64,000 bases of DNA from Voacanga thouarsii (Eukaryota; Streptophyta; Magnoliopsida; Gentianales; Apocynaceae): NCBI GenBank assembly GCA_026120185.1, contig JANUWF010001614.1:3087501-3151500 (forward strand). The letters are read 5' to 3'. This document shows, piece after piece, positions 15,811-59,884 of this stretch. Position numbers and translations under genes: made by a program. Numbering within the stretch: the stretch's first letter is position 1; every line of letters begins with the position of its first letter. The notes beneath the pieces were generated by a model that did not search any database, was not told the DNA's origin, and was given only the letters and a program-made list of their open reading frames with translations.

Positions 15811-15826
15811 GTACAGGCTCTTGAGG

Positions 15827-16811: not shown

Positions 16812-17075
16812 AGGTTTAGATTGAGTGTTATTTAATTAATTGTTAATAGGGTTTAAATAGAATAGATTTCCATACATGTACCCAGTACATAAAATTTCTC
16901 CATCTCTACTGATAGAAATAACAGAATGGAAAGATACAGAATATCATTGATTTATTAATTTTGCAACTAAAATCAAATTATGATGAAAACCAGGTACATA
17001 TAAAATATCTATTAAAACCACTTTTTTATTTCAATAAAAAATAAGATCTAGCACTCCCACTGCAAGGGCCCAGAC

Positions 17076-25043: not shown

Positions 25044-26477
25044 TGTCGGGGATATGCCCTAGAGTCAATTTGTACTTCTACTAGTGTCATTATGTTTTAT
25101 ATAATAATATGAGGCTTTCCTTTCCATGAATAGTGAGTTTTGTTTTGTGGTCATCAAGTACGTGACTTGATAGTAAAACCCTACAATGAATACAATGACT
25201 ATTCTAAAAACTGTCCCTGATCGATTATTATTATTGGAATAATAATAAATTAAGATTAGTATGTTTGTGACTTGATGGCTATGTTTTACTGGCCATGGAT
25301 ATTTGTGATATCGAGTCAAGACATAAATAAATGTTAGAGAACATTGTATTGGACATGACCCACTGTGAGAGTACTTCATGGAATATGTCATAAGTACTTT
25401 CTAGCCATAATAATATTGAAAGTCCTTCGACCTAAATTCATCATAGTTTCCTACTTGATAAATTCTATATTTTGGACATTGTCTAAAGTTGTCTTTAACC
25501 AGATAATAAATTAGACTATTGTTGGATATAGAATAAATCAAGGAGAGGAATATGATTGATTGTGAAGGAATTTGTCCCTCTCAGTTATGGGAGAGATATC
25601 CATGGGCCCCTTGATAAGTTAGACTGTTAAAAATGCATGGCTCAAATATATCAATCTAAGATATTGATATCATTTGTTTGAACAGTCTACTATGAAATCA
25701 AGAAATAATTGATTAAGCTTAATAAGGATGACATGCTCTGTGCCTTATGCTTAATTTGGATATCGTGTGACAAAAGGACTAAATATAAAATTATAATTTG
25801 GTTCAAAGAGATCACCGATCTTTATTTAACCTAGATAGTTATAATTTTTTGCTAGAAACCGCTTATAACTTGTGGGCCATTTAAATATGATTTAGGCACA
25901 CTGCCAGTGTTAAATGAACCTATATGGTCACACAATAAGCAAACTTGTTAGGTTATTTTTCTGGTGACCAGGTTCGATGTATCTGGATGATGTCCAGATT
26001 ATAAGAATCTGACTCGGTAAATTAATTAGTTAAATTACCGAGATAATGGCAGAATCTTATCATATCAGTTTTAATTTAATTTGAATTTAAATTAGAATAT
26101 GATAAGATATTATTAGGGTTGGACTCTAAGATGTTCGAGGGTTTTTAAGAAAACCCTAGCCGTCTTTTCAATAGTCTAATTTTTCGGTTGAGAACATTCG
26201 TGCCAGAAAAAAAAAAAAAAACCTCTCAAACCCTAGGCGCTAGCACTCCCCGGGTATCGAGTGAGTTCGCGGTGTGTATCCGATAGAGGACGTTCACATA
26301 CTGCAGCGTCTGGTGATTGTTCGGGTTGAACGTGCAACAGTGCAACCAGAATCGAAGGATTTCAATTACAGCAACCAGAGGTAATTCTTAAACCTTAGAT
26401 CTTCTTAATTGTTTACTTGGGTCCTCGGGAGGGATTCTTGGATGTTTTCCGCGTTTAGGAGTCCACGAATTCTGACA
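25044..26477 (+). mobile_element. Solo Copia LTR (1434 bp) inside the Gypsy element
   Basis: It starts TGTCGGGGATATGCCC and ends CACGAATTCTGACA, with TG...CA termini and 5-bp duplications CTGTG on both sides. A near-identical copy lies at 59885-61330. There is no internal region, so it is a solo LTR produced by LTR-LTR recombination. It sits between the archaeal-type RNase H and integrase of the Tat element. Strand is given relative to the TGTTGGGG start. Its reversed end resembles the start of the Copia-4 LTR at 51146, which suggests a related Copia family, in which case the transcribed strand here may be the plus strand. Confidence 0.93.
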
Positions 26478-26912: not shown

Positions 26913-27440
26913 TCATTTGACTGCTTTCAACGACACATGGATTAGGAAAAAAACATGTAATTTGACTGCCCATTTCATAATCCATCCATTTAACAAAGGA
27001 CGATTCAGTAGGAATTTAACTAAATCTACCTTACACAAGAAATGTACTTCCCTAAACAACAAATAATGTTCCAACTTTGAACACACATAGTAGAGAGATA
27101 AGTACAATTTTTCAATAGGGGTGTACCTGGTCTCTATGTCCGATAGATTTCGACTAATATAGTATACTGCTCTTTCAATCCCATGTTGGTCATCCTGAGC
27201 TAATAAGCTGCCAATGGATTCTTGCGCAGCTGAGATGTACAGCTTCATGGGCGACCAGTTGTGGGGAGGTGCTATCACCGGTGGATGGGACACAGCTATC
27301 TTTATCTGATCAAATGCCTCCTGATGCTCAGGCTGCCAAATAAACTCTTGAGATAACTTCAATTGTAACAAAGAGGAAAAGCTCTTCTGTTTACCTTCAG
27401 AATTCACTAAAAAACATCGTAAGAAATTTATTTTCCCCAA
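26913..27440 (-). pseudogene. Tat element RT connection and RNase H
   Basis: A 175-codon open stretch starts shortly after the RT core. It reads FIWQPEHQEAFDQIKIAVSHPP (thumb/connection), then LYISAAQESIGSLLAQ, in which the RNase H catalytic DAS is replaced by SAA, and ERAVYYISRNLSDIETRYTPIEKLYLSLYY, the conserved Gypsy segment with the catalytic E equivalent. The loss of the catalytic aspartate suggests that this RNase H is inactive in this copy, whereas the second RNase H keeps its motifs. Confidence 0.85.
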
Positions 27441-31225: not shown

Positions 31226-31916
31226 TGTTGCTGTCAAAATAATGAGCCGATGCAAACAGGTATCGGCGACACTTCCGATGAACACAAATGATCTAATATG
31301 GTGAGACAGAAAATGGTATCAAATCTTTTTTTTTTTTTTAATCAGGGATCGGATTCCTTGAACTTACTATAGAAAGGGTTCAAGAAAGTCAGCTGAAAAT
31401 ACCCAACGGAAGGACTTTTTGGAGCAATAAATTAATACTCGTATTACCTTGCTTAAAAGAAATTACAGAGAAGATCTTGACTTAGAAAGATGAATGGAAA
31501 GCTGTAAAGAAAGCTGGAAACAAAGCTATAAATAAAAGCTGTAACAAAGCTATAAGAAATTGAATTCCTAGATTAGAAAACTGTAAATGACGATAGAAGT
31601 AATCGAAATTTGAAGTTGTTGGTTGATGAGTGTTGTCCTCCATTCTGGACAATGCCCCCATTTTATACTGGCTGCAATCAAGTCGCTAACAGGTCGTGGA
31701 GTTTCTTTCGGCCAAAGAATGCTCCCAACAGTCGTGCAGAATTCCTTGCGCCGAAAGATTAGGAATCTGTTTTCCTTCTTATCAGCTTCGTGGTGCCGAC
31801 GTTGACCATGACTATCGGTTGCTCAAATTGTTGACCTTATCGGCTAGGTAAAACTTATCGAATCAGCAACGACTCAAAGTAACCATTGCGTCGGCTCAGC
31901 AAAGTTGACGTCAACA
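31226..31916 (-). repeat. Tat element 5' LTR (691 bp, inferred boundaries)
   Basis: The plus strand reads TGTTGCTGTC at the start and GACGTCAACA at the end, giving a perfect 5-bp inverted terminus TGTTG/CAACA of TG...CA form. Just below it the minus strand reads TTGGCACGCCTAGTAGGAC, a wording typical of the region following the LTR in Tat elements. A TATA box on the minus strand, TATAAAAT, is at 31660-31667. No partner LTR is in the window, so the boundaries are inferred from the termini and the switch to microsatellite at 31917. Confidence 0.65.
31660..31668 (-). promoter_or_regulatory. TATA box in Tat LTR
   Basis: The minus strand reads CCAGTATAAAATGGGGG around these positions. It is about 250 bp into the LTR on the transcribed strand and about 430 bp ahead of the gag side, a fitting place for the LTR promoter. 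Confidence 0.55.
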
Positions 31917-32174
31917 CATACATATATACATGTATGTATATATGTATTTATGTACATATATATACATATATATATACGTGTAGGTATGTATATATACATA
32001 TATATATACGTATATATATGTACGTATATACACATTTTTCTTATCCTTATGGGTATAAAGGCTGGAAACAAACAGCACAGCCAGAAGAGCTAACACGCTC
32101 GAGGAACGTACTTCCTTGCTATCAGCTACAAAGCCATGTATCTATTTGGTGCCAAAAAATTGTGCCTCTTTATC

Positions 32175-32222
<48 letters not shown>
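31917..32222. repeat. Compound microsatellite, left side of viral block
   Basis: 31917-32034 is made of ATAC/ATAT/GTAT repeats in alternating purine-pyrimidine order. 32035-32179 is non-repetitive. 32180-32222 is a (TG)n run of about 21 units. The tract lies directly against the Gypsy LTR on one side and the presumed viral block on the other. Confidence 0.9.
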
Positions 32223-32224
<2 letters not shown>

Positions 32225-32452
32225 AGTAGGGTATAGCAAATAAGCATGCATTCGTAAGAAAACATTCACCTACTATACAGTGGCTCCAGAAATAAGCCTG
32301 TTAGATGATCCCAAAGATGCATAGTCTTTCTACAGATACCAATCATGTAGACTGACTAGTTGAGCAAGTTTGTTGAAGTATAAGACTTCTTCGGTTTTGT
32401 ACTAGCAAAATTTTTCTTTGATAGATCAAACCCATCAATATGCATTTAAAAT
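32223..32452 (-). other. Possible leader part of the endogenous pararetrovirus
   Basis: No protein is seen. At 32331-32341 the minus strand reads TGGTATCTGTA; its first seven bases match the tRNA-Met primer site TGGTATCAGAGC used by caulimovirids. After discounting the nested element at 32453-36741, this position would lie about 950 bp downstream of the presumed viral TATA box, plausible for a leader. The match is short and could be chance. Confidence 0.3.
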
Positions 32453-34082
32453 TGTAACACCCCACTACCTAGGCTCAACAGGGCTAAGGATGTCACCTCG
32501 TCCATAGGACAAGGGGTCTTTATAACTAGGTCACATAAAAGAAAATAAAAGCAATACTTTAAAATTAAACTTATTACAACCCAAAAAATACATGAACAAA
32601 TCCAAAATAAATTATTTCCTACAATCTCTCAAAACAACACATAAGGAAATTAACATAACGTCTTCAAAGCATAGGCAACAAATCTAGCTATTGTCCTCCA
32701 TAGTAAGATCGACTTGAAAACATGGCATAAAGGGTGATGAGATAAAAATCTCAGTAAGCCTGTGTGTTCTTTGAGTGTTTCAGGAAAACAGTTCATGTAT
32801 GTAAGTTGTAATAATTTCATAAGAGAAAGTGCTGGCAAGCATTAAATAAATGACAAAAATAAAGAGTGGTGTTTTACTTTTCAAATCATACATGTGTGCA
32901 ATAAATACAACCACTCAAAGAGGCAACCATGGGTTACCACACGTTGGGCCCCATGACCATAAAACAGTTAAAATGCCACACGTTGAGCATGCTGACAAAA
33001 GGTAGGTGTACGGCCTACCGGGTGAGATACTCCTCCATCTCTACACCCAAACTTACCAGTTGTCCACTCCGAAAACACAGTCCACATGACTGAAACTTAC
33101 TAGCTCAGACTGGCATGACCTACCGAACTAGCATCCTATTCGGGAAGGACTCACCCCTCAGAGGTGGCCACCTGCTGAGAGACTTACCCTAACCCTTCAA
33201 AGACTAGTCCTAGTAGTCTACCCTTATTGAGTACTTAACGTTGATTATCCCACTTGGGAGAAAATTGATCATACAATGATTTACATGAAAATAACAATTA
33301 AGGGTTTCTTAAATTCTTGTCAAAGTTGGGTTTTAGAAAGAGTTTAGCATTTTATGTAAAACTACTTGTTTAATTTTGAAATGATTTGCTTGACTGAAAT
33401 AAAAAGGGAAAACAGTCCTTAATTGCCTTTACAAAATGAATGTCCATACATATCACATTTGGCTTACCACAGTAATTTTTTGTCTTTAAATAATTCCATG
33501 CAGGAGCTTACCTGATCCTTTGCTTGCTTGAATTCAAAAATCTTCCATGGCTGACCTAACCCTACTTGGGGTAAATACAAGGCATAAGGTTGTACTCGAG
33601 CTAAACTTGCTTACATAAATAATCCCTGATTCAACTAGTTACAATCATGACCTTAACCTAAGCTTTAAGGCTAGATGATAAAGAATTTTATAAAATAAAT
33701 CTTGCTCGATAAGTTAAAATAACTAGGGGTTGTAAAATAATTACTAATAAGTTAGAGGTTCAAATAATAAATCTTAAGTGTTATTATTATTAAGTAAACT
33801 AGTGTTTGAATATTGAATAATACTAAGTCCTAAATAATATTAATAAAAGGTAATTTTTAAATAGTATTACTATAAATAAATAAATAATTAATATTTAATA
33901 GATAATAAATAATTAGTAGTAAATGAAATTAATAATAAATGAATTATATTAAATTTTTTATTAATAGATAACAAATAAATTTTAATATAAATAATATTTA
34001 TGAATATAGGTAAAAGTTTTAACTATGGTCTACAAGGTCTTTAATATTTTATTTATTATTATTATCTATATAGAAGATCTTA

Positions 34083-34122
34083 TTTATTATTATACATACA
34101 TATATATATATATATATATATT
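34083..34122. repeat. (TA)n microsatellite
   Basis: An ATACATACATATATATATATAT-type run in the AT-rich part of element 2. It is absent from the related element 1. Confidence 0.85.
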
Positions 34123-36429
34123 ATTTTTAATAAAAGATATTATTTATTTGACTACTAAAATATCAGTATTTCATTTAATATTCCAATTCCGAAACTTCCT
34201 AAGAATTTTGAAATCTTTAGAGAAAAAATATAGTAATAATTTTAATTAAGGTAATAAAATTTGTTACTAAAAATAACCTTGGATTAACAAGAAAATAATC
34301 ATAATTTTCCTATTGCTAAACAAGATTCATGAACACATTGTCCAACATCAAACAATAAACTAATCCATTCATGAACATAGGCTAAAATCAACACATACTA
34401 TCACATGGCCTAATCCCTACTACGCATAATAATCAATCATGGCTTCAATGGAAATAAGAACATAAAATTCCTATTCACCAAAGGTGTCATAACATCTAAC
34501 ATGCTTTAAACATCCATAATTTTCTTAGGACATGATGAACATACATTGGTTCTCAAGAAAATCCATATAGCTTATCATGAACAACCATTCTCATGTCCTA
34601 ATCCCAACCCCTTCATTCACATGCATACACTCAATCCCTCATTCATATTCTATTCTTCCTATCAACATCTAAGAGACATGAATGCAGAATTAAAAAGGAG
34701 GATTAAGGAGAAATACTTGATTGATGATTACTTTGATGAAGACTTAAGAAGGTCCACGCGATTGAGAGTCTTGAATTCTCCAATAGCACAAAAAACAGCC
34801 ATGGTTGTTGATCAACCATTTCGGCCGAGAGAGAGAGAGAGAGCATTAGTAGGGTGCATTAAATCTTGAATGGAAGAAGATGAACAAATGAGTTGTTCTT
34901 GATTACCTTAATGATGTTCTTGAGACCTTCAAGAAAAAATTGGTTTTTGATCTGAATGCAATTTCTTGTTTTCAAGATTTTGTGTTATAAATACCAGAAA
35001 TGAACTCTAGGGAGTATGTAGGAGTAATCTAGAGTATTTGAGAGGGATTGGAGGTGATTAGGGTGGGTTTTGCCTTGAAGAAATGTAGTGTGTGTTCTTG
35101 GTGTTCTTGGTAAAAATTGAGAGAGTTTGAGAAAAAATGCTGCACGAAATCTGGGAGAATATTGGCCGAATGGTTTAGGGAGTTTAGGAGTTTCGATTGT
35201 CAGCTTAGAGAGGAAGAGAATAATCTGATTGTTTGAAATTCAAATGGAGAGATTTGAGGAGTGGTTTGAGGTATAGGATATGTTAATGGTGTTTGATGGA
35301 TGGAGGTTTCTTAGAGCTGCAATGGAGCCAGCTGGACTGGTTTGCTTTGCTAAAATGAAGAAAGATTGATGGAGCTTTAAGGTTGGCTGAAATTCAAAGC
35401 ATAATGGCAGAGGAATTTCTGGTTTTGAGGCCTAGTACAAGAGTGTTTTCATGGAGCAAAATGCTGAAATTTTTTTAAGTTCAAATATAGTTTGAATTGA
35501 GTGATCTTAGGAGATATTTGAGGTGTGGTTATGGAGTCCAAGTGTTCAAGGTAAGTGGAGAGGTTAATGTTATTCTTTTCATGGATGAACAAGGTTCATT
35601 TTACAGAGGTTTGAGGGTGGTTTTTCGGCCAAGGCTTAAGGGAACAAAGCTGGAAATTTTCTGGGTTCATGGTGTTCAAGGCTTCAAATGGTTTGCTGCT
35701 GCACTTCTTCAACCCGATTTGCAGAGGATTTGGAGAGGTGTTTGAGGGTCTTTTAAGGCTGGTTTTCCATCCTTCTTTTTGGAGGAAAAGCAGAGGAGTT
35801 TTGCTGAGTTGACGATAGAAGAAAATAGCTCTATTTCCAGGTTGTTGTGCAGCAAAACAACCCAAAATGTTTTTCCTGGTTTATGCTGTTTTTGTGCAAT
35901 GCGAATTTGCCCAGAAATTTCAGTCTTCAAGCTATATGAATTGGTCATTTTTCTGGCAGTAAATGAGTAAGAAAGCTGGCTGTGTTTTTTGAAAGTTAGG
36001 CTGGTCAAAAATTCTGGAAAATTTCCAGATTTTCTTCATCAAGAACATGAACACTATGAAGATGAGTTTGAAGGTTCAACCATGGTGATTGATTTCCCTT
36101 GGGAACCCTTCCTAACTCCTCTCCTATTTTTGGTCAACCCTCTAACTTCCAAGATCAATTTTTGAATTACAAAGCCAAAAAACCCTCACATAATTTTCTC
36201 GAATTAAAAGATGAATTTTGATGAATTTTGAACAATTTAAATTGTGAAGATGTTAGGACAAGCTAGAGGTAATAAAAGGATAAGAATTCCTCTAGAATTC
36301 TTTTTAGGACTTGATGATAGGATTAAGACATTCTTTTCATGTCTCCCCTAGAACAACATTCCTATCTTTAAGGAATGTAAGAAAACAAAAATTCAAACTT
36401 AACTAAGATAATCATGAATAAAACTTAAG

Positions 36430-36496
36430 TGATAGGATTTGAACTCATGACCTTAGAGGTTTATTCCAAAGCTCTAACCACTAAACCACAACAACC
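36430..36496 (-). other. tRNA-like segment with Pol III A/B-box similarity in element 2
   Basis: On the minus strand TGGTTTAGTGGTTAGAGC (complement of 36471-36488) is a good D-arm/A-box likeness. GAGTTCAAATCC (complement of 36434-36445) is a good B-box likeness. The segment is about 310 bp from the right end, as in element 1 (about 315 bp), so it belongs to the family rather than to a separate SINE insertion. Confidence 0.55.
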
Positions 36497-36741
36497 ATTG
36501 TTCTTATTTTCTCACCTAAATATTCTTCTTAGTTAATCCTCAAGTTATCTTCCTATTTTGTCCTCAAGCAAAATTACCATTTTGCCCTTCCTACTCAATA
36601 AGCATAAGTAAGCCTTTTAACCTATAAATCATAATTCTAAAGCACATAAAATCATTCAAAATATATATATACTCATGAAAAATAATATGATATGCATCCC
36701 AACCCCCTTACTCTAGGGTTGGCTTTAGGTGGGATTTCACA

Positions 36742-37437
36742 AAAACTATCCCAGGTTATTCTGGGATTGTTGAAAACATAGTCTAGAACCCAAGGATGAA
36801 AAGGAGATTCTTTCTTTGGAATTCTTTTGGAAAGTATTGAAAGTTGTTAGTACAAGTTTCTGCTTGGATCTGCAGATAAATGAGTTATTGATCACAAGCT
36901 CTTATTGTAGCCAATTGATTTAATTGATCTAAGTAATAGTAAGAACAAATGGGAGTTCTTGTCATAGATTCACATATTTGAATCATCCTATGATATTCAT
37001 ACTAAAGTAAACTTAAACAGACTTCTCGAGTCAATAAGTTTTTCAACCAGGGATTATCAAAACACATGAGAAATAAAGTAAGAGAGAATCAAGTTCTAGC
37101 AACCATCACGAAATAAGTATTCAACTATAATATGTCTTAATTTTAAAATCAAAATTCAGTTTCTTTAGATGACAAACTCTTTCTTGGATGAACTAGGTTC
37201 TTTTCATATTCAAATTCATAAATCTATTTATTTCAAACCCAAATAAACTCACCTTGTCAGCTTCCAACGGACGGTACTTTTTTTCCCTTAGCCTCCCTTC
37301 TAGGCTGTAGCAATTCTTTTTCCCAATTCCTCAGCTTTACGTCTTTTGTTTTTCTAGGTTTTAGACAAATAAATTTGTTTGAATAAGGTCCAACGCCCTT
37401 CAAGAAAAAGAGAGTGATAGAAAGATAGAAAATGGAT
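36742..37437 (-). other. Non-coding region beside the viral block, downstream of its promoter
   Basis: No protein motif was found. In the viral reading direction (minus) it follows the presumed TATA box and polyadenylation signal, so it may be viral leader sequence. An open stretch at 37257-37469 has no recognisable motif. Confidence 0.4.
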
Positions 37438-37445
37438 ATTTTATT
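37438..37445 (-). terminator. Possible viral polyadenylation signal AATAAAA
   Basis: The minus strand reads AATAAAA here, about 150 nt downstream of the TATA box at 37588-37600. Caulimovirids make a terminally redundant transcript with the poly(A) signal shortly after the start site, so the spacing fits. Such a short motif is common in AT-rich DNA. Confidence 0.35.
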
Positions 37446-37587
37446 AAAACATAGTATAAATGAGTACAAGTGGAGAAGGTTTCTAAAACCTTATCTCTCT
37501 TACAAAGTAGATTCAGCCTAGAAACATTGATGTACAAGGGAGAAGGATGAGAATGCTAAAAGCTGCTTCTTCTTGTGCCATCTGATT

Positions 37588-37600
37588 CCTTTTATAGAGG
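37588..37600 (-). promoter_or_regulatory. Presumed pararetroviral promoter (TATA box)
   Basis: The minus strand reads CCTCTATAAAAGG, a strong plant TATA box. It lies downstream of the last viral ORF (37910-38752), where caulimovirids carry the single promoter for the genomic transcript. About 190 bp upstream, at 37782-37790, is the palindrome ATGAGTCAT, a bZIP (GCN4-type) binding core. Position and motifs fit a 35S-like promoter; activity is not shown. Confidence 0.5.
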
Positions 37601-37909
37601 AAAATCTTAAGTTTTGCGGATTTTAATTGAACTTTTTGAATTTCAAAAGATGAGTGGAGGACACTTGTCCTGTCCTTAAAGTGGAGATTCCTTTACTTTT
37701 GACAAAGTAGGAAAAGTGAAGTCTACTTCTTATCTTTAATAGTGGTTGGCCTTTCAAAAAAGTAGAAGCCAGGTGCCAACTATGAGTCATTACTTGGGTG
37801 CAGTTGCTGGTGCTTTATCTTCATCTGTTTGGCTAGCTGAGTCAAATCTGGACATAGAAGCTATATCTTGTATATGTTGTGGATACTTTTCTTCATAATG
37901 TGATACTAA

Positions 37910-39160
37910 TCATGAATCAGCTGTTAAATGTTGAAATGGAAGAAATATGGTGCCAAATTCTTTAGGCCAATAGTATTTTTCCATCATGGTTTCTCCTGCT
38001 AAGCAAAATTCAAGTTTGTCATTTGCAGAAAAATTCCATTGAGTTCCAATGATCTTAGCACGCCAGTGTTTAAGTTGATAATCAAGTGTGGTGCCAGCTT
38101 CCCATTCTGGATCAGAGCTTAAATCAGGGAGTAAGCCTATTTCTAATGTACTGATTCTAATGAAGTGTTTTGCTGGCTCAATTTTTGAGGCTATCCATTC
38201 AGGTGGAAAGCTTTCACTAAATAAGTGGGTAGAGCCTTCAAAGGTCTGAAAGAGTTTTCTAAGAATCATATTCAGAGGATGATGAAGGTCCATGGTATAG
38301 GTTATATCATCCACAGTTAACGAATTTAATAACCCATAAGTCATTAGTGAACTGGGAGTAATTTCTACTCCTACAAAATAAAGTGTAGAAAATAGGCTCA
38401 TATCAATATTGGCTTTTCGAATGGAATAAACCAGTTGACATTTGCAATAAAAAAGTCCTGGATTAGATCCAAAAGTCTGCACCTTGCATTGGCTAAAATG
38501 GCCTTTACAAGATCTTTTCTATGCATACTCAACCTCATAAAAGAGTGAGATGCCTACGAGTTCAAGAATGGAATTCCTGTGAGCTTCCTTAAAGAAGTTA
38601 AAATGGGTTGTCATAGTAGAGATACTGATGTATTCTACAATGACCTTGATTTGGCTTACCAAAGGGTTAGGAAGTTTTTCCCACACTTCGATAGGACCTT
38701 TGGTTGATTCCCCATGACATGAGTTACCGAGACTTAAGTATTTTCCGTACACTATTTCAATTGAAGAACTGGATTTAGTGTTTGGCTCAAATGAAAAAGA
38801 TGTCTAGTGAGTAGGGGCCTTAGTAGAAGATGAAGAAGTAACAGTTTGAACAAATGTGCTTCCCTGCTGTCATATCAAACTATGGGGCCTGTTTTTCAAA
38901 TTTTGAGAAATGAAGAAGTTTGACCCTACGCATTGTCTGGTTGTTTCCAAAGCTTCTGATAAGTTATAGAATCCTCTGTAAGAGGTTCCTTTGAGGCCAT
39001 AAGGCTTAATTTTAGCCTAGTCTGAGTATACTCCTGCATGTTCACCTGTAAACAAGGCATAACAAGAGAATTTCTTTCCTTGGGGTTTTTCAGAAATGCC
39101 AAGAAAATTATTAAAATTACTTTTGAGTTTGATTGGTCTGGGGGAGTGACCAAATTCCAT
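37910..39160 (-). pseudogene. Endogenous pararetrovirus downstream ORF, unrecognised
   Basis: Open stretches at 38926-39153, 38519-38752 and 37910-38482 (190 codons) follow the RNase H on the same strand and precede the promoter. I do not recognise the protein. The longest piece is hydrophobic/acidic and tryptophan-containing (PPEWIASKIEP, LKHWRAKIIGTQWNF, EKYYWPKEFG) without metal-binding or membrane motifs. Tungroviruses and florendoviruses have an extra ORF in this place, and caulimoviruses have their transactivator there, so position alone suggests an accessory viral protein. The pieces are separated by stops near 38500 and 38900. The content between 39160 and 39300 is unclear. Confidence 0.5.
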
Positions 39161-39299
39161 AAGTTGTCAATGAGGCAACATTAGACTTCATCCAGCTATT
39201 TTCTCAGTTCTGAAGTAAACTATGTTTTTGGGTTTTGATGAATTAGAAGTTCACGAGTCCCAAATTTCATGGTTTTGAGTGTTTAGGCTTTCTTTTTAC

Positions 39300-39700
39300 C
39301 TCCTCTGTCAGCCATTCCTATTATTAAACAATCAAACAAGAAAGAATATCAGCAGCAGCATTTTGAGGACCTTTAATATGTTCCCAATTGATCTTATGTC
39401 CTTGTTTTAACAAACAATCAATAAATTTAAGCAATCTTTTATAAGATAAGCCTTTAGGTGTAATCTTAGATTGTTCTGCAAATTTAACTATTGCTTCACA
39501 ATCCATTCTGATAGTTATTTCAGGTCTGCCTAATAGACAGAATCTAAAACTATCCAAACAATATAATACTGCAAGTATTTTATAATCCAAAGAGGTTAAA
39601 TGTCCTCTCTCTGAATTTTCAAGAAGCATAACTGCATATAAGTTCAGTAGTTTTAGGAAAGTATTTGTTTTGCTTTTGCAATAACACACCACCCCATCCA
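39300..39700 (-). pseudogene. Endogenous pararetrovirus RNase H
   Basis: The open stretch 39324-39692 contains the caulimovirid RNase H signature: LTSLDYKILAVLYCLDSFRF (E replaced by D in the usual xxSYxKEILA-type segment), IRMDCEAIVKF with the catalytic aspartate, and INWEHIKGPQNAAADILSC with the HIKGxxNxxAD motif. Its start at the TD motif lies on the other side of the solo LTR (39706-41463). Discounting that LTR and one copy of its target duplication, the reading frame is continuous. It is an old integrated copy without an intact polyprotein. Confidence 0.85.
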
Positions 39701-39705
39701 GTTTC
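39701..39705 (+). repeat. Target-site duplication GTTTC (left copy)
   Basis: GTTTC immediately precedes the solo LTR and recurs at 41464-41468, splitting the viral RNase H coding region. Confidence 0.88.
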
Positions 39706-40052
39706 TGTTAGGTATCTCACGCATATCACATATGGCGCAGTGGAAAACTAAGAACGAGATGCCAACTCAGGATCCGTATATATGTGGAAAACAAGACATA
39801 AATAGAACAAAGCTAACAGCTTTACCTTTCTTTAAGCGTTTGAAAAATAAAATTTTTCCTTCTTCAAGTTGAGACGCGATTCAGCAATCCTCTTAATCAA
39901 ACACCATGAGAGTTGAATATCTAACCACTATAATCAAAGTGTGTGATTATCTCTAACAGACATCCACACGGAGGATGACACTCAAGCACCAAGATGTTTA
40001 TGTGCTAGCATAAACCAAAGTGGCGGCTAGGGTTCTTCTTGTTTTTTAGAAA

Positions 40053-40100
<48 letters not shown>

Positions 40101-41463
40101 TTTGGAGTTGTTTTTGGCGTTACACCCATCCAACTAGGGTTTCGTGTGTCTCATATATATGTTATAGGAAAATCTACTGAAAAAATATTCCAACTCAAGA
40201 TTCTAAAACAATTAGAATTGCCTAATTGTAATTGGAAACATCAAGTTTTCACAATTATAATTTAGACCATAAATTATAACTAATTATAATTTGGCCATAA
40301 CTTCTCTTTCTCGCAATTAATCCCACTATGTTATCAAATAACATCTTGAGTATATAATCTTTTATTGTGTATGACCTATTAGGTTTCCCAGTCAATTGGT
40401 AGAGAATATGAATTAATCCAAACGTCTTTGAGATTAATAATCCATAATTAATTAGAATTAATTATATTAATTCTAATCAGAATTGATTTATTAATTCATC
40501 AATTAATAAACTCATATTCTCAAATAATGAGTGGTATCTAGCAACACATCATGACCACCCAAGAGTCTAAGAAGTTAAGTGGCTTGACATGAATCCTTCA
40601 ATAACAAACTACAGTGCAATTAACTCATTTTACCACATAATATCTTATTCGGTTTGGAGTATGGAATTAGTGCTAACTACCTCCAGAATATATATTAATT
40701 CTGGCCCGAATATAATAGTACTTGTACCAGGAACCCACTACTCTAAATGTGTATCAATTGGAACTGTTTCCAATCCACAATTGCCTTGGCCAAGGACTTC
40801 TCGAGTAGTAATTCCTACAAATGGCCGTGAGATATTTGCACCTACTATTAGGAGTGGTGAATAATGTATTGACCGTCTCAACTACTTTCATTTACCTCAT
40901 AATGTACCCAATATCCCTCCCATAGGCGGCCCTTGATCAAGCTCCAGAGATTGGAATCAAAGCACAATGCTCAGCCAACAAAGTACTTTGGAGATCTCAA
41001 GTCTAAAGATACTTGCACGTTTGCTATATTGAGATTTTATCACTGGCACTAAATAGTTATCCATGTGATTATCTCAAATCTAGGTCATCCAATGAACTTG
41101 TTCTATTAACAAGCATTCACGTGTTAACTTTGAGTATCTCAATACTCATGGATATGAGAACCACTGCCTGATCAAATCAGAAAATCTAACACATGCTAGT
41201 CTTAATGCATTAATGATGTCCTGTCTCATTAATACTACGACTAGGGACTATTTAAGCACTAACACTATACAGTGTAGTAGGAATCTCATATCATGATCTC
41301 TATCATGATTTTCTTAACACAGTGTTGAACTAGGGATTTTATCTAACAGTTATATTACATAAAAGTAATCAAAAGAAACTTTCAGATAAATAACACCTTT
41401 TATTAAAATAAAATATGTCATATATAACGTACAAGTGATTGCCTCTAGAGCATAACAGTAACA
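39706..41463 (-). mobile_element. Solo LTR of the Copia-3 family (1758 bp)
   Basis: The plus strand starts TGTTAGGTATCTCACG and ends CATAACAGTAACA, with inverted TGTTA/TAACA termini and the duplication GTTTC on each side. It aligns through most of its length with the Copia-3 3' LTR at 58838-61933 once that LTR's nested insertion is ignored. That LTR also gives the orientation: the transcribed strand is minus. A (GA)n microsatellite occurs within it. Confidence 0.92.
40057..40098. repeat. (GA)n microsatellite in the solo LTR
   Basis: About twenty GA units. The same position in the Copia-3 LTR has only a short GA run (59138-59150), so the tract expanded in this copy. Confidence 0.9.
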
Positions 41464-41468
41464 GTTTC
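41464..41468 (+). repeat. Target-site duplication GTTTC (right copy)
   Basis: GTTTC follows the TAACA end of the solo LTR and equals 39701-39705. Confidence 0.88.
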
Positions 41469-42430
41469 ACATCCATCAGTTTCAACAATTAAGTAATCTG
41501 AATCTAGTGGAAGAGTAAGTTCAAGCAAAGTCCTACACATCTCTTTTATTTTCCTAACCAACTGCATATCTTCTTGGTTAAAATGTCTTTGTCCTTTTGG
41601 AGATGTTTTATTATAAAGAGGGCCAGTGAGTTTGCCAATATTTTTTAAATAAGGCTTGGCATAATTAAGAAGTTCAAGAAAACTTTGCAAAGTTTTGAGA
41701 TCTTCCATTTTATTTGGAAAAGTCAATTTTTTTGCTGAAATAGCAGGTTGAAGTTTAATCCTGCCTAGGCCAATTTCAGCTCCAAGGAAATCAATTTTTT
41801 CTTTGAACAAGGCCATTTTTTGTTTAGAAACAATCAATCCATATTTTTCAAATAATGAAAAGATTGTATGCAAGTATGCCTAATGTTAATTTTTCGTTTT
41901 ACAGAAAACTAGAACATGATCGATGTAAACACAAGTAAAACTAGAGTAAGGTCTAAAAATGTTGTCTATTTTCCTTTGGAAAACATGAGGTGCTATTTTT
42001 AGACCAAAAGGCATAACAAGCCATTCAAAATGTCCTTCAGGACAAGAGAATGCAACCCAACTTACTGATTCAGGATGAATTCTTACCTGTCAAAATCCTG
42101 ACTTTATGTCAAACTTACTGTATCATGAAGATCCTTGGATTTTATTGATGAGCTGATCCTTATCTGGAATCTTGTATTCGTCTTCATTACAATTATCATT
42201 AAGACGCTTGTAATTAAAAACCATTCGAGTTTGGCCCCGTTTTTGTTCTGATCCTTTATTTACAATAAAGGTGGCGGACCTATGCCTGGAGTCTGATCGT
42301 TGAATTGCTCCAAGACTAAGCAGTTCTTCCACATGCATCTTGCATTCCTACTGCTCAAAGTTAGAGTATTTCATATCCTGAGCTTTAATAGTTAGATCAG
42401 GATTGATAATATCAAGTTTGTAAAAAACCT
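41469..42430 (-). pseudogene. Endogenous pararetrovirus reverse transcriptase
   Basis: 42123-42338 encodes the start of the RT core: HVEELLSLGAIQRSDSRH, RMVFNYKRLND and DEYKIPDKDQLI. The middle (41880-42120), with stops, retains WVAFSCPEGHFEWLVMPFGL. The active site around 41915-41940 reads YIDH in place of YIDD, so a catalytic aspartate is lost. 41469-41873 covers the thumb (LFEKYGLIVSKQKMALF, IDFLGAEIG) and the first RNase H residues (LIVETDG). Motifs are those of Caulimoviridae rather than LTR retrotransposons, as shown by the LGAIxxSxSxHxS wording. At least three stops and the lost aspartate show that it is inactive. Confidence 0.88.
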
Positions 42431-43720
42431 TGTCTTTGTCCTAATATTTTAGGGGGTTTTCTCCTATAATTTCAAGTTTCTCAAGCTTAGAAATTAGGTC
42501 CTCAATAGACAAAATGGACTGTAAATTTTTTAGGATTATTTTAGGATGAACATAGCTATTTATTTCTTCCAGTATAACTCCTGATATACAGTTATCTTCT
42601 TCATGGAAGTCAATACATAGAAGATCAACATGATCATCTAATATTTCATAACAAGTTAAAGTCAATGCTATGGCTACAAGCCGCTTTCTTTTTAGCCTTT
42701 ATTCTAGTATTTAGATTACCTTTCCTTTTGCAAGCTCCAGGGGGTTTTCATAAACAGTCATTTCTAGGACCATCTAAAATTGGGACCAAAGCTAAATTAG
42801 GTTCAGGTTGGGGTGAAAAAAAAGGGGTATCACCACGATTAGCTCGTAACTCTAATGGACAGGATGAGAGAGTAGGTAAATGTTCAGTAATTACAGGGGT
42901 GAGGACCAAATGTTCAAAGAACAGGCAATAGTTGTTGGTTAACAAACAAGCCCTATCATTATGAGTAAGGAAATTTAATCCTAGAAGTAGATTGATATCC
43001 TTATAATTCAAAGGTCGGACCCATAATTCAGAAATAGAGATAGGTTTGGACAAGGAATCACAATTGTTCAAAAATCGAATATGGCAATTGGTTATATATG
43101 TATCTAAGGTACGTTGAGTACCATCAAATTAGGTACTATGGAGAGGAATTTTTTCATGTTTCAAAAATTTGTTTGGAACAAATTCTGCTAAAAGGTTTTG
43201 ATCAATGGTGGATCGAGAGGCACCATTATCAATAAAATCATCTATAAGTCGTGTAAAACCATGAACATTTATTTGACAAGCAACCTGAGTTAGTGTAAGA
43301 TTTGTTATCCGGTTCATTGATAACATACCTTTTTGTTTTTCTCCAAAAATGTTTGAAGGGTCAAAGTCATTAGTAGCTTTTTCTTCAAAATAATTTTCTT
43401 TAAATTGAATAAATTGAAGTTCTAAGTCATTAAATTGAGTTTCTAAAGTGGAAACCCTAGTTTCTAAAAGTTGGTTTCTTGTGGAGTTTTTCACACAAGG
43501 AGTCTGAGTAATATCTATTTGAAAATATTCTCTCAAACATAAATTACAAATTTGTTTTTTGCAAATAGAGCAAGTAGCTCTGCTTAAAACAGAGGGATAA
43601 TGGCTGCATTTGAAACATGGGACATAATCCATTCCTTGTTTTAGATGCCAAGTATGTGTACAATCAGACGTTAGAAGAGAAACAGATTTTTGTTTCAGTA
43701 AACACCATATCAATTTCTTC
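42431..43720 (-). pseudogene. Endogenous pararetrovirus aspartic protease and second Cys-rich motif
   Basis: 43129-43713 contains near its start a cysteine array CX2CX11CX2CX4CX2C (CFKC at about 43610, ATCSIC, ICNLC). This is the second cysteine motif described for bacilliform caulimovirids such as Badnavirus and Tungrovirus. A coiled-coil-like stretch (LETRVSTLETQFNDLELQF) follows, then the protease active-site DNGAS at about 43215. 42748-43071 continues with VRPLNYKDINLLLGLNFL, the protease end, then 42441-42665 leads to RT. The order CP-PR-RT-RNase H matches the family. Stops lie at about 43128, 42747 and 42440. Confidence 0.82.
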
Positions 43721-45117
43721 TTCAGAATATAAATGATTTATCTCATCAAATTCTGGAAAGTTGAAGTTTGTAGAATCATAGCTTAGAGATGTAAGGCCAT
43801 ATTTTTTGCCATAGATTGGGGCTTGGTTAGTTCATTCACCAAAGCATAGTTGGGTTCTGTACCTTCTTCCCGTTGAAGAGATTCTATCTCACAAGTGGAA
43901 TAAATAGAAGAAGAGTCAAAAACGTCTGAAATTACTTCCAACAGGTCACAGTTAATACAATTTACAAGTTTGGCTTCTCTTGTAAATAAGTTTTTCATGT
44001 CATGACAAATAGAGAAAATGTGTCCTAGCTTATTACAGGTATAACATGTAAGAGTAGATTAATAAGATTTATTAGGTTTAAATCTTCTCACATACTTCTT
44101 TTTGTCAAGATAGAGCTTTTTGGCCTTACTCTTGCGTAAATACAAAGTTTCTGAAGGTTTTACCTTTTGTTTGCTCTTCAGAGGTTTATATCTGGGTTTA
44201 CCAGAATAAATACCTCATTTAGTATGGAGTTGTTTTGCCCCATACTGCTGGGCAATATAGATTTGAGAGCAAAACCCATTTTTTTGTTTTTTCAACATCT
44301 TTTGAGTTGCAATATAAGTACATTTGTCCTTCAACTTACTGAGAATATGTTGGATTTGAATCCCAACATTATCAAAAGTTGGTGGAACAGTTATGGCTTT
44401 CCATGCTTCATGGATTTCTTTGCCAAGTTGATCCGGTAGTTTGGAGAAAAGCCTTTCTCCCATCTCAAGACTATAATAGTTTCCAGAAACTGCTGTTAGT
44501 GCCAAAAAGTCTAAACAAAATGGCTTAACATAATACCAGTTTAGTAATTGCAGCTGCTATAGGTCTCTTATAGCATCAATTTGTCTAAGATTGAGAACAG
44601 TGTTAGCATCTCTAGCAGTGAGTATTCTATCAATAGAATAGAAAAAATTGAGAATATTATTACCTTGTTGAGCAATACGAGTTACCTCATCAGGGAATTT
44701 GGCTTTGAATCCTTCTCAGGCTGCTCTTGCAACATCTCTTAGATAGTTTTCTGCTACCTGGATCATTGCTTCTCCTGAATCAATATCTAGTTCATGTTTT
44801 TGCTGATAGTCTCTTTTAACAAAGGCTGTCCATTGTTCAAGATAAGTATCAAATAATTGAGGGTCACATTCAATTATGTTGAGTAATACTACATCTTTTC
44901 CAAAAAAGGTTAGTTTTGGAAGTCTTCTTCTTCCAGTAGTTCTAAGTAAAGGATTAGGATTGGTGTAAGGATTTATAGCAGTCCTAGGTGGATGTCCTCC
45001 TTGGTCATAAACCATTGGTCTAGGCACTAATTCTGGATAGGAGACATTATAGGGTCTAGAATGGACATTCAAGTTAGGAGAAGAACAAGAAGTTCCTCTC
45101 AGACCTACTAAAAACAT
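43721..45117 (-). pseudogene. Endogenous pararetrovirus coat protein region
   Basis: 44716-45117, 44215-44505 and 43783-43998 are open pieces in one direction. The first has LLNIIECDPQLFDTYLEQWTAF and EAMIQVAENYLRD; the second LSKLKDKCTYIATQK. Between them the frame has ILNFFYSIDR. A lysine-rich segment precedes the zinc knuckle CX2CX4HX4C at about 44030-44050 (CYTCNKLGHIFSIC), the RNA-binding knuckle of caulimovirid and retroviral capsids. Stops lie near 44715, 44510, 44210 and 44058. The N-terminal movement protein is not visible on this strand. Confidence 0.8.
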
Positions 45118-45520
45118 TACTTATGAAAACCCGGATGGAACTTTAAGTGTTAGGTTTGCAAACTATATTAATTCAACACATCAGAATGAAGATGGGCTAG
45201 AAGAAGAATTGGATACTTATAACCCACCATTAGCTGATGGAATGAGGAGTATTTGATGATATAGAAGAATTCCTATACTTCCTAAAAGAAATAGAAAGAT
45301 ACTTTTCTCAGGAAGAACTATTCCAACAAGAACAAACTGATCTGGAGTCAGGAAAACTCCCAAAAGGATATAAACTTAGATTTGGAATAGACTTGGAAGT
45401 TATAGCCTATAAGGTTCCTATTTTTAGTCCAACTACTACTCTTAAAGATGAAACAGAACTAGAGGCGCCTTCTGAGACTCTTTCTACCATATCTGAAACA
45501 GATACAGATATTACTCATAT
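45010..45520 (+). pseudogene. Plus-strand open segment beside the coat region, possibly inverted viral piece
   Basis: On the plus strand a frame reads ENPDGTLSVRFANYINS and EEELDTYNPPLADGMRS (about 45120-45255); after one frame change, 45260-45515 reads EEFLYFLKEIERYFSQEELF, LPKGYKLRFGIDLEVIAYKV and ETLSTISETDTD. Upstream it overlaps the antisense coat-region ORF. The composition (acidic, no stops for long runs) looks coding. I cannot match it to a family. It may be movement-protein or N-terminal polyprotein sequence in inverted orientation, as happens in rearranged viral integrants. It ends at the microsatellite at 45525. Confidence 0.4.
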
Positions 45521-45524
45521 ATCA

Positions 45525-45525
45525 G

Positions 45526-45593
<68 letters not shown>

Positions 45594-45636
45594 GTGTGTA
45601 TATATATTTTTATTTGTGTGTTACACACACACACAC

Positions 45637-45682
<46 letters not shown>

Positions 45683-45739
45683 ATTGTGTGTATAGTTATA
45701 TATGTATATATATACATACACATATGACACACATACATA

Positions 45740-45770
<31 letters not shown>

Positions 45771-45885
45771 CATATGTGTATGTATACACACACACACACA
45801 CACACATATTAATGTACTTTTGAATATATTATTAAATATATATATTAATATATTATATACACATATATATTAATATACTATTTTA

Positions 45886-45941
<56 letters not shown>

Positions 45942-46128
45942 TAATACAACATATTAATATATATATATATATATACATATATATATTGATATATTTTTGA
46001 AGTATATTAATAAATATATATACATATATATACATACACATATATATTAATATACATATATATACACAATTAATATATATATATATATTAATTTATATAC
46101 CAATTACATACCAAAAACATATATATAG

Positions 46129-46165
<37 letters not shown>

Positions 46166-46256
46166 CGACATACTTTTTTAATATATTAATAAATACCTAT
46201 ATACATATACATATATATATATATATTTATATATACAAATAGCATATGAAATGCAT

Positions 46257-46297
<41 letters not shown>

Positions 46298-46320
46298 TAT
46301 AGCATATGAATATGTATTAA
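45525..46320. repeat. Compound dinucleotide microsatellite, right side of viral block
   Basis: About 800 bp of (TA)n, (GT)n, (CA)n and (TG)n blocks, including (TA)n at 45530-45570, (GT)n at 45571-45592, (TG)n at 45747-45768, (CA)n at 45786-45806 and 45888-45921, and (TA)n again at 46258-46291. ORFs predicted here are artefacts of the repeats. Some TG and CA blocks form inverted repeats. Confidence 0.93.
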
Positions 46321-46339
46321 GAATATACACCAAATACAT

Positions 46340-47660
46340 ATAGGCGTATTAAATTAACGATCCAACAGTTTGATTTGCTAAAATTGTTTTAAAAAAAAGT
46401 GTTATGACAAAAGTTGAAGGTAATCGGATATATTTTGTAACATAATCTAGCATAATATCTAAAATAATATCTAATACCTAATGCATTTATAAAGATAGGC
46501 ATATCTAATTAACGATGCAATCGTTCAATTTGTTAAAATTGCTTAGGAAAAATGTTATGACATAAGTTGAAGGTAATCATATATATTTTAGAGCATAATC
46601 TGGTATAATATCTTAAAAAACATCCAAAACCTAATTCATTTACAAAGATAAGCATATCAAGTTAACGATCCAACTGTTAGATTTGTTAAAATTGCTAGGA
46701 AAAGTATTATGACAATATTTGAAGGTAATCAGATATATTTTGAAACATTTTCTAGTATAATATCTAGAAAAATATCCAAAACATAATGCAATTACAAAGA
46801 TAGGTGTATCAAATTATTGATCCAACCGTTAGATTTGTTAAAATTACTAAGAAAAGTGTTATGACAAAATTTGAAGGTAATTGGATATATTTTGGTACCA
46901 ATTCTAGCATAATATCTATAAAAAAAATTCAAAACCTAATGCATTTAGAAAGATAGACATATAAAATTTATGATTCAACCATTATATTTGTTAAAATTGC
47001 CAAGAAAAATGTTATAACAAAATTTAAATGTAATCGAATATATTTTTGCACATTATCGACATTTCTATCGGCTCCCTTTATTGGCAATATCCAAAACCTA
47101 ACACATTTACAAATATAGGTGTATCACATTAATGGTCCAATCGTTAAATCTATTAAAATTACTAAGAAAAGTGTTATGACAAAATTTGAAAGTAATCAGA
47201 TATATTTTGATACATTATCGAGCACACTATCTAAAAAATACCCAAAATTTAACGCATTTACAAAGATAGGCATATAAAATTTACGACAAAATTTAATTGT
47301 ATTCAAATATATTTTAACACATTATCTCGCATAATATCTAGAAAAATATCCAAAACGTAACACATTTACAAATATAGGCGTATTACATTAATGGTCTAAT
47401 AGTTAGATTTATTAAAATTACTAAGAAAAGTGTTATGACAAAATTTGAAGGTAATCGGATATAGTTTGATACATTATCGAGTATGATATCTAGAAAAATA
47501 TCCAAATCCTAACGCGTTTACAAAGATAGGCATATCAAATTAACGATCTAACAGTTAGATTTATTGAATTTACTAAAAAATATATTATGACCAAATTTGA
47601 ATATAATCGGATATGTTTTGATACATAATCTAGGTTAATTTCTATAAATCAGCCCAAAAT
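46340..47660. repeat. Tandem array, unit about 152 bp, nine copies
   Basis: The landmark GTTATGACAAAATTTGAAGG and variants recur at 46401, 46554, 46706, 46858, 47011, 47173, 47280 (shortened unit), 47432 and 47584, so most spacings are 152-153 bp, with one of 162 and one of about 107. Each unit also has AAAGATAGGCATATCAAATT and GATCCAACCGTTAGATTTGTT. No coding is seen. The array lies between the microsatellite and a CACTA-like terminus and could be a subterminal or internal repeat of that element, or a local minisatellite. Confidence 0.88.
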
Positions 47661-47680
47661 ATAATGCATTTATAAATATT

Positions 47681-48010
47681 TAAAAATTTAGGGACTAATA
47701 TGTAAAATTTTTGGGATTATATTTTAAATATTCTAAAATTTAGTGGCCAATTTATAAATTTTTTGTTATCATTTTCTAATTTTACAAAATTTAAGGAGCA
47801 ATTTGTAAAATTTGGGGTCATATTTTATATATTTAAAAATTTAGAGACCAATTTATAAAATTTGTAGGGTCATATTACAAATATTTTTAAATTTAGAGAT
47901 CAATTTACAAATTTTTTAGGTCATTTTGTAATTGTACAAAATTTAAAGACCAATTTACAAAATTTTTCAAGCTATGTTGTAAATATTTAAAATTTTAAAG
48001 ACAGGTATTA
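47681..48010. repeat. Tandem array, unit about 52 bp, six to seven copies
   Basis: The motif AAATTTAGAGACCAATTTATAAAATTT followed by GGTCATATT repeats with variation. It is directly distal to the 152-bp array. Units are strongly diverged. Confidence 0.8.
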
Positions 48011-51145: not shown

Positions 51146-52406
51146 TGTTAGAATTCGAAGACTCTTTAAACACAGAAAACACCCTCGAATTCTTCTAGGA
51201 CCTATGCTAAAACGTATCGTTAGGGACTTGATAGAAGGTCATACCTCAAAATGCCATATAATATTTACTGATATGAAGAAGACTCTGTTGTCCAATAAGA
51301 CACATAGAGAATTTTGTTTTCAACCAAAGTGTGCTAGCACCCTTGGAAAGAAAAATACTTTTTGGAGATTTTTTGGGTTTCAGAGTGTTTGACAGAGAGA
51401 GAGTTTTGTGATGGCTAGGGTATTTACTTTATAATACCTAGCCTATATATATAACATCTGAACTCTTAAAACTATTTTAAGAGTTCTTCTCACAACCAAT
51501 CTCCCTATTTGGTGGATCATATTTTTTTTATATTGGTCATATCTTTATAAAACCAAATTTCAAAAGATATGAATTATCTTACTAGATAATATCGGTAACT
51601 ACTAATTAATCCATCAAATTAGATACAAGGTATCTGGACGTCTTTCAGATACCTCGAACTTAGATGCCTTTTCTAAATATAATGTATCTAGACATACTTC
51701 TAGATACAATAAATCTGGACATACTTTTAGACAAGATGAATCTAGCCACCAGAAAATAAAATAAGTTTTTTGCTTAATGTGTGACCCTGTAGGTTCATCT
51801 AATACTAGTAGTGTGCCCAAATCACATTTATAAGGCCCACAAGTTATAAGAGGTTCCTAGCAAAACATTACAAATACCCAAGTTAAAATAAAGATCCGTG
51901 ATCTTTTTAAACCAAACTAAAATTTGATATTTAATCCTTTTGTCTTATGATATCCTGATTATGTATAAGTCATGGAATATGTCATCCATGACTTGATTTC
52001 TTGATTTCTAAGTAAACTGTTCAAAGCAGTTATATCAATATCTTTAATTGACACATTTAAGTACGACTATACATTTTAATAGTTTAACTCATCAAGGGGC
52101 CCATAGATATCTCTCTCAATAATAAGTGGGACAAATTCCTTCACTTTCATTCATATTCCTCTCCCTGACTTATTCTATATGCAATAGTATCCTATTCAAT
52201 TATCTAGTTAAAGACATCTGATGATTATGTCAAGATATAAAATTTACTTAGTAGGAAACGATGATGAATTCAGGTTAAAGGACATATAATATCATAATTT
52301 GAGAGAGAAGTGCTTATGGCATGTCCCATTAAGTACTCTGATAGTGGGTCATGTTCAATACAATGTTCCTTAATATCTATTTAGGTTTTGACTTGATATC
52401 CCATTT
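51146..52406 (-). repeat. Copia-4 5' LTR, truncated at far side
   Basis: The plus strand begins TGTTAGAATTCG next to the primer site. The rest follows, in reverse, the order of landmarks of the solo LTRs at 25044-26477 and 59885-61330 (the ATGACCCACT, TCAAGGGGCCCAT and GACTTGAT blocks in opposite orientation). It is broken at 52406 by the next element, so its outer terminus is absent. Confidence 0.82.
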
Positions 52407-58837: not shown

Positions 58838-59879
58838 TGTTGGGTATCTTAGGCTCGTATCCCATACGACGCAGTGAAAAATAAATGAGATACCATCCCA
58901 GGATCCACATATGTGTGAAAAACAAGATATAAAGAGATCAAAGGTAACAGCTTTTTACCTTTCTATGATCGTCCGAAGAACAAAAAAAAATTTCTTCAAG
59001 TCAAAGCACGATCCAATAATTTTGTAGCCACATGTATGATTACCGCTAACAGTAATCCACACAGAGGAATACTCAAGCACCAAAATTTTCTGTGCTAGTA
59101 GAAAAGGATGGCGGCTAGGGTTTCTTAAGAATAATCGTGAGAGAGAGAGAAGAAAAGGTTTAGGTGGCTGCAATTTTCATGTGAATTCCACTCTAGGGTT
59201 TTTCGGTTATATTATCATAAAACTGAAAAATTCACTGAAAATCTGGAATTCTAAAATAATTAGAGTTCCCTAATTGTAATTGGAAACATCAAGTTCTCAC
59301 AATTACAATTTGGACTACAAATTATAACTAATTATAATTTATCCACAACAACTTCTCTTTCTCTCAATCAACCCCATTATATTATCAAATAACATCTTGA
59401 GTATATAATCCTCTATTGTGTGTGACCTATTGTGTTTCCCAGTCAATTGGTAGCGAACATGAATTAATCCAAACATCTTTGAGATTAATAATCCATAATT
59501 AATTAGAATTAATACTATTAACTCTAATCAAGATTAGTTTATTAATTCATCAATAATAAATCCATATTCCCAGATCATGAGCGGTATCTAGCAACACATC
59601 ATGACCACCCAAGAGTCCAGGAAGTCAAGTGGCTTAACATGAACCTTTCAATAACAAATTTCAGTGTAATTAACTCCTTTCACCATACAATATCTCATTC
59701 GGTTTGGAGTAGGAATTAGTGCCAACTCCCTCCAGAATTAATTTTGGCCCGAATGCGATAGTACTTGTACCAAGAACCTACTACTCTAGATGTGTATCAA
59801 TTGGAACTATTTCCAATACACAATCGCCTTGGCCAAGGACTTCTCGAGTAGTAATTCCTACAAGTAGCCGTGAGATATT

Positions 59880-59884
59880 CGCCC
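59880..59884 (+). repeat. Target-site duplication CGCCC (left copy)
   Basis: CGCCC precedes the nested solo LTR and is repeated at 61331-61335. The related LTR at 39706-41463 has the uninterrupted site near 40835-40860. Confidence 0.93.

What the first reader, a model, noticed from the sequence alone, without database searches (positions are those of the whole stretch)
31917..46320. Endogenous pararetrovirus block bracketed by dinucleotide microsatellites, about one genome long
Viral remnants lie between a compound ATAC/(TG)n tract (31917-32222) and a compound (TA)n/(GT)n tract (45525-46320). The interval of about 13.3 kb contains a 4289 bp element and a 1758 bp solo LTR, which leaves about 7.2 kb, near one caulimovirid genome. 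RTBV-like and florendovirus integrants in other plants are reported to favour AT-dinucleotide repeats. This looks like a single-unit integration into such a repeat that later received two insertions.
Basis: partly seen in the sequence, partly recalled or inferred. Interest (0 to 1): 0.75.

Follow-up and report, generated by a model that had tools for sequence, protein, structure and literature searches.

The report
Scrambled ancient plant virus beside repeats
This stretch of a plant chromosome holds the decayed, incomplete and apparently rearranged remains of a pararetrovirus next to simple repeats, later split by two retrotransposon leftovers: a familiar kind of viral fossil rather than a neat one-genome insertion.

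Summary
The viral block is real: Pfam finds a caulimovirid coat-protein domain (2.1e-16) and reverse transcriptase (6.2e-13). Minus-strand order: coat protein, zinc knuckle, protease-like motifs, RT, RNase H, second ORF, promoter-like sites. Both claimed inserts are confirmed and read as solo LTRs: 39706-41463 (TSD GTTTC; relative at 58838-61933 beside a copia-like pol) and 32453-36741 (TSD 4 of 5; relative at 10865-14177 shares both ends and has TSD AAGTG). The one-complete-unit model is not supported. No movement-protein match was found in 28 pieces scanned, minus-strand ORF1 is about 500 codons shorter than a florendovirus ORF1, and near 45120 the open frame switches to the plus strand (45121-45530), suggesting a head-to-head junction of two fragments, though no database match proves that piece viral. 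The right tract is a (TA)21 abutting that open frame; the left tract is GT/ATAC, 231 bp from the nearer insert, in sequence of unproven origin, and touching a gypsy-like LTR end. Repeat association and rearrangement of such integrants are already published (PMC4241990, PMC526188). Genus and host could not be tested. A new locus of a known kind.

The parts
31918..32035 (.). left ATAC/TATG-type repeat tract
32178..32221 (.). (GT)22, left repeat
32222..32452 (.). 231 bp of unproven origin, host or end of the viral leader
   Evidence: no coding signal, no Pfam match in 3 pieces, best other hit in the window E 0.038
32453..36741 (.). insert read as a solo LTR
   Evidence: TG...CA, flanks AAAAT/AAAAC; both ends match the relative at 10865-14177, which has a perfect AAGTG TSD
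36742..37439 (-). probable viral leader (non-coding), inferred from its position after the promoter-like and poly(A)-like sites
   Evidence: no coding signal; no primer-binding site within 3 mismatches
37440..37596 (-). TATA-like box 37588-37596 and AATAAA 37440-37445
   Evidence: function inferred
37910..39315 (-). broken second ORF, about 469 codons by span, no Pfam match in the pieces scanned
39324..39705 (-). RNase H region (partial)
   Evidence: PF17917 2.7e-4 and PF13456 1.7e-3, both below curated cut-offs
39706..41463 (-). solo LTR, copia-like, 1758 bp
   Evidence: TG...CA, TSD GTTTC; relative at 58838-61933
41464..42698 (-). reverse transcriptase region, broken
   Evidence: PF00078 6.2e-13 at 41889-42089; 0.026 at 41445-41873
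42751..43737 (-). protease region, broken
   Evidence: motif-like DNGAS 43216-43230 and LLGLNFL 42967-42987; motif meaning recalled; no Pfam protease match
43786..45117 (-). coat protein with zinc knuckle, broken
   Evidence: PF22909 2.1e-16 at 44215-44505; zf-CCHC 0.008, below cut-off
45121..45530 (+). piece open on the opposite strand, probably viral and inverted
   Evidence: 95-codon and 44-codon open stretches; shuffles and codon score; no database match
45530..46301 (.). right repeat tract, beginning with (TA)21

Best explanation
Circular caulimovirid DNA, florendovirus-like in gene order, was captured long ago as at least two pieces, probably as filler during repair of a double-strand break in or beside a TA-rich microsatellite. 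The main piece runs on the minus strand from the coat protein through protease, RT, RNase H, ORF2 and promoter into the leader. A short piece, probably from upstream of the coat protein, lies head-to-head in the opposite orientation against the (TA)n tract. The movement-protein region and primer-binding site were lost or never captured. Later two LTR retrotransposons inserted and each was reduced to a solo LTR, one in (or at the edge of) the leader and one in the RT-RNase H region. Shown: viral domains and order, the two LTR-like units, (TA)n at the right edge, the strand switch of open frames. Inferred: viral origin of the plus-strand piece, break-repair capture, and that the left repeat was part of the target.
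For: Coat protein and RT by Pfam and collinear order on the minus strand. Both inserts have TG...CA ends, target duplications (one perfect, one 4 of 5) and relatives in the window with matching ends. The plus-strand 95-codon open stretch before (TA)21 is matched on that strand in 15 of 5000 shuffles and on either strand in 56 of 5000; its codon score is reached by 3 of 850 non-coding windows, by 0 of 850 without a stop. No movement-protein match in 28 partly overlapping pieces. Precedent: inversions, deletions and AT-repeat flanks in rice integrants, TA association and break-repair hypothesis.
Against: The plus-strand piece has no database match, so it could be host DNA; its 44-codon part is weak (8 of 912 null windows do as well). 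The codon model is weak: in leave-one-out tests the true frame scored best of six in 8 of 14 training pieces. The left side is not a TA repeat, and 231 bp next to it are unassigned. Not every open stretch of the block was scanned with Pfam. An assembly error at 45120 cannot be excluded.
Confidence: 0.66

Rival explanations
1. One reading: one complete linear viral genome integrated as a single unit into a microsatellite and was later split by two insertions.
For: Length of 7,255 bp without inserts lies in the 7.2-8.5 kb range of florendoviruses; repeats on both sides; one collinear minus-strand gene series.
Against: No movement-protein match in 28 pieces; minus-strand ORF1 about 1,344 codons by span against 205-216 kDa in florendoviruses; strand switch at about 45120; 230 bp without any viral sign.
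Confidence: 0.1
2. The virus ends at about 45100; the plus-strand piece 45121-45530 is host DNA, so there is one truncated viral fragment without an inversion.
For: No Pfam or viral contigs match for the piece.
Against: Viral-like codon score without a stop, 0 of 850 null windows; it lies directly at the coat-protein start.
Confidence: 0.2
3. The repeats have nothing to do with the integration: the left tract is the surroundings of a gypsy insertion and the right tract the edge of a satellite array.
For: TTGACGTCAACA, a likely gypsy LTR end, abuts the left tract at 31905-31916; a 153-bp satellite begins at 46340; left tract is GT/ATAC, not TA.
Against: 14 of 17 perfect dinucleotide runs of the window lie in the two tracts and the other 3 inside the inserts; the right (TA)21 directly abuts the open frame; published TA association.
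Confidence: 0.25
4. The integrant is a component of a bipartite florendovirus and naturally lacked the movement protein.
For: Published components have a truncated ORF1 (section 7 of PMC4241990).
Against: There, component A loses part or all of the coat protein (sometimes also MP and protease), and component B keeps MP but loses RT; here coat protein and RT are both present. The strand switch is not explained.
Confidence: 0.04

Closest known systems
Endogenous florendoviruses (Caulimoviridae; PMC4241990, passages and sections 5, 6, 7, 9 seen)
   Same: Order coat protein with zinc finger, protease, RT, RNase H, then a second ORF without homologues (45-58 kDa there; about 469 codons here); often near TA repeats.
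   Different: Movement protein not found here; apparent inverted piece; RT-based clade membership not tested.
Petuvirus-like integrants such as the Carrizo citrange virus (mentioned in PMC4241990 section 6)
   Same: Said there to have an organisation that superficially resembles florendoviruses, so it could fit this block.
   Different: Cannot be told apart here without an RT-RNase H comparison.
[quoted passage not shown]
   Same: Rearranged, with deletions and inversions; ends in the intergenic region; AT repeats at 93% of ends.
   Different: Different virus genus by name; here only one end is at a TA repeat.

Membership tests
Caulimoviridae (endogenous) | caulimovirid coat-protein domain | tested here: met
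   PF22909 2.1e-16
Caulimoviridae (endogenous) | RT with RNase H | tested here: met
   RVT_1 6.2e-13; RNase H 2.7e-4 and 1.7e-3, below curated cut-offs
Caulimoviridae (endogenous) | movement protein | tested here: inconclusive
   no match in 28 pieces; may be lost by truncation, and not every stretch was scanned
Caulimoviridae (endogenous) | initiator-Met tRNA primer-binding site in the leader (consensus recalled) | tested here: not met
   no site within 3 mismatches at 36742-37437 or 32223-32452; may lie in the missing part of an incomplete copy
Florendovirus | two ORFs, second of 45-58 kDa without known homologues | tested here: inconclusive
   broken ORF2 span of 1,406 bp, no Pfam match; first ORF incomplete
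Florendovirus | monophyly in protease-RT-RNase H phylogeny | not testable with these tools
   no caulimovirid reference sequences found in six scans
Solo LTR, 39706-41463 | TG...CA ends, 5-bp TSD, related LTR beside a pol gene | tested here: met
Solo LTR, 32453-36741 | TG...CA ends, 5-bp TSD, relative with the same ends | tested here: inconclusive
   own TSD 4 of 5; relative 10865-14177 with perfect TSD; no internal retrotransposon region seen with either

The most novel reading that the evidence does not exclude
The locus records a caulimovirid lineage, perhaps an undescribed one, whose capture joined two viral molecules head-to-head at a TA microsatellite, so that the junction near 45120 preserves the end-joining step of virus capture.
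Probability: 0.12. Interest if true: 0.4.

Novelty: new member of a known kind. Interest (0 to 1): 0.2.

Why it matters
It is one more locus in which an ancient plant virus sits against a TA repeat, and it shows how length arithmetic can suggest a complete provirus where the sequence shows a partial, apparently rearranged one. If the inverted junction and an empty repeat allele were confirmed, it would add a case for capture of viral DNA as filler in break repair.

Tried and rejected
Rejected: the single complete unit model (see rivals). Rejected: 32453-36741 as some other kind of element; its ends, its 4-of-5 TSD and the relative at 10865-14177 fit an LTR best.

Led nowhere: six scans of viral contigs with three RT pieces, one coat-protein piece, one RNase H piece and the plus-strand piece found no relative. 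Protein searches with an ORF2 piece (38 candidates, none at E 10 or better) and a coat-protein piece (4 candidates, none at E 1 or better). That tool only takes proteins of 0.55-1.75 times the query length, so full-length polyproteins were out of reach; it does hold plant proteins, as the copia-like control shows (3559 proteins at E 1e-5 or better, best 120 listed). Structure models of an ORF2 piece (mean pLDDT 31.8) and a coat-protein piece (46.6) were too poor to use, and no fold search was made. Rfam found nothing at gathering thresholds in 31500-46500. Four paper searches; beyond the three papers cited, I saw only their listings.
Full report
What is there. The stretch 36742-45530 carries decayed genes of a caulimovirid. 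Pfam gives the caulimovirid coat-protein domain at 44215-44505 on the minus strand with E 2.1e-16, reverse transcriptase at 41889-42089 with E 6.2e-13, and weak RNase H matches at 39324-39692 (2.7e-4 and 1.7e-3, below the curated cut-offs). A zinc knuckle (0.008, below cut-off) and protease-like motifs (43216-43230 and 42967-42987; their meaning is recalled, and Pfam gave no protease) lie between coat protein and RT. A second ORF follows RNase H at 39315-37910, about 469 codons by span, with no Pfam match in the three pieces scanned. A TATA-like box at 37588-37596 and AATAAA at 37440-37445 follow in the same orientation. The genes are broken by stops and frame changes.

The two inserts. The unit 39706-41463 begins TG, ends CA and is flanked by GTTTC on both sides. 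Its sequence recurs at 58838-61933 in four pieces of 76-88% identity, interrupted there by a 1.4 kb stretch that also occurs at 25044-26470 with 95.6% identity. That relative lies 14 bp from the end of a copia-like pol ORF (61948-62703, minus strand; copia by the names of some of its protein hits; Pfam gave nothing for it at 1e-3). The unit 32453-36741 also has TG...CA ends and flanks AAAAT and AAAAC. Its left end matches 10865-10938 and its right end matches 13807-14177 up to the last base. The relative 10865-14177 is 3,313 bp, has TG...CA ends and a perfect AAGTG duplication; the two are about 60% identical over 3,077 aligned columns. I read both inserts as solo LTRs, the first securely, the second with good but not complete support.

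Is it one genome? The interval without the inserts is 7,255 bp, inside the 7.2-8.5 kb given for florendoviruses (PMC4241990 section 6). The content does not add up. Minus-strand ORF1, counted from 45117 to 39324 less the LTR and one TSD copy, is 4,031 bp or about 1,344 codons, while the paper gives 205-216 kDa for an ORF1 that includes the movement protein; that is roughly 1,850 codons by my conversion. No movement-protein family was found in the 28 partly overlapping pieces scanned (8, 10 and 10); some open stretches of the RT region were not scanned. No primer-binding site within three mismatches lies in 36742-37437 or 32223-32452. Upstream of the coat protein, where the movement protein would be expected, the plus strand is open instead: 44 codons at 45122-45253 and 95 codons at 45246-45530 in another frame. 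A stop-free run of 95 codons arose on the plus strand in 15 of 5000 dinucleotide shuffles and on either strand in 56 of 5000. With a codon model trained on 1,555 codons of the minus-strand open pieces, the 95-codon stretch scores 0.206 bits per codon without a stop; 3 of 850 non-coding windows reach that score and 0 of 850 are stop-free. In an earlier run with a different step, 0.3% of 666 null windows were stop-free and the highest null score was 0.245. The 44-codon part is less telling: 8 of 912 null windows do as well. The model itself is weak: left out of training, the true frame scored best of six in 8 of 14 pieces. No database match proves the piece viral. The simplest reading is two viral fragments joined head-to-head somewhere at 45053-45121, with the movement-protein region missing.

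The repeats. Of 17 perfect dinucleotide runs of 14 bp or more in the window, 13 lie at 45530-46290, one at 32178-32221, three inside the inserts and none elsewhere. The right edge is convincing: the plus-strand open frame runs straight into (TA)21. The left edge is not: (GT)22 is separated from the insert by 231 bp in which neither coding signal nor Pfam match was found, and the ATAC part abuts TTGACGTCAACA at 31905-31916, which looks like the LTR end of a gypsy-type element (integrase 24414-24893 and RNase H 26913-27440 by Pfam; the LTR reading is mine, and no second LTR copy was found). Neither non-coding part has a convincing copy in the window; the best hits have E 0.038 (32222-32452) and 0.048 (36742-37440). 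The host genome could not be searched, since genome search did not complete.

Comparison with what is known. Florendoviruses have the same gene order apart from the missing movement protein and a second ORF of 45-58 kDa without homologues; (TA)n-proximal loci made up 14-51% in the species named; capture as filler in break repair is proposed (PMC4241990: passages; sections 9, 5, 6, 7). Rice tungro-like integrants show deletions, insertions, inversions and duplications, ends in the intergenic region, and AT repeats at 93% of ends (PMC526188: passages; section 11). A review gives the repeat association, break-repair hypothesis and multicopy rearrangements (PMC10377300: passages). Florendovirus membership is not claimed: the RT phylogeny could not be run, and a petuvirus-like citrus virus is said to have a superficially similar organisation.

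Verdict. A real but ordinary fossil of a known kind. The mechanism I favour is capture of at least two viral pieces at a repeat-prone break, followed by two LTR insertions reduced to solo LTRs. The LTR at 39706-41463 came after the virus, since it interrupts viral coding sequence; the one at 32453-36741 did so too if 32223-32452 is viral, and otherwise sits at the edge.

Noticed in passing
46340-48002: Tandem array with units of about 153 bp (46340-47648), followed by a related-looking 52/102/153-bp array (47668-48002), directly beyond the right repeat tract.
   Followed up: no
25044-26470 and 59885-61323: A 1.4 kb stretch at 95.6% identity, once inside a gypsy-type element and once inside a copia-like LTR; weaker inverted relatives near 51712-52403.
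   Followed up: no
10865-14177: Relative of the 4.3 kb insert with the same ends and a perfect AAGTG duplication, read as another solo LTR.
   Followed up: yes
2517-6783 and 15488-19719: Two 4.3 kb stretches at 85% identity with copia-like ORFs.
   Followed up: no
32036-32177: 142 bp between the two left repeat parts, open on the plus strand over all 47 codons (82 of 1000 shuffles do as well); no Pfam match.
   Followed up: partly
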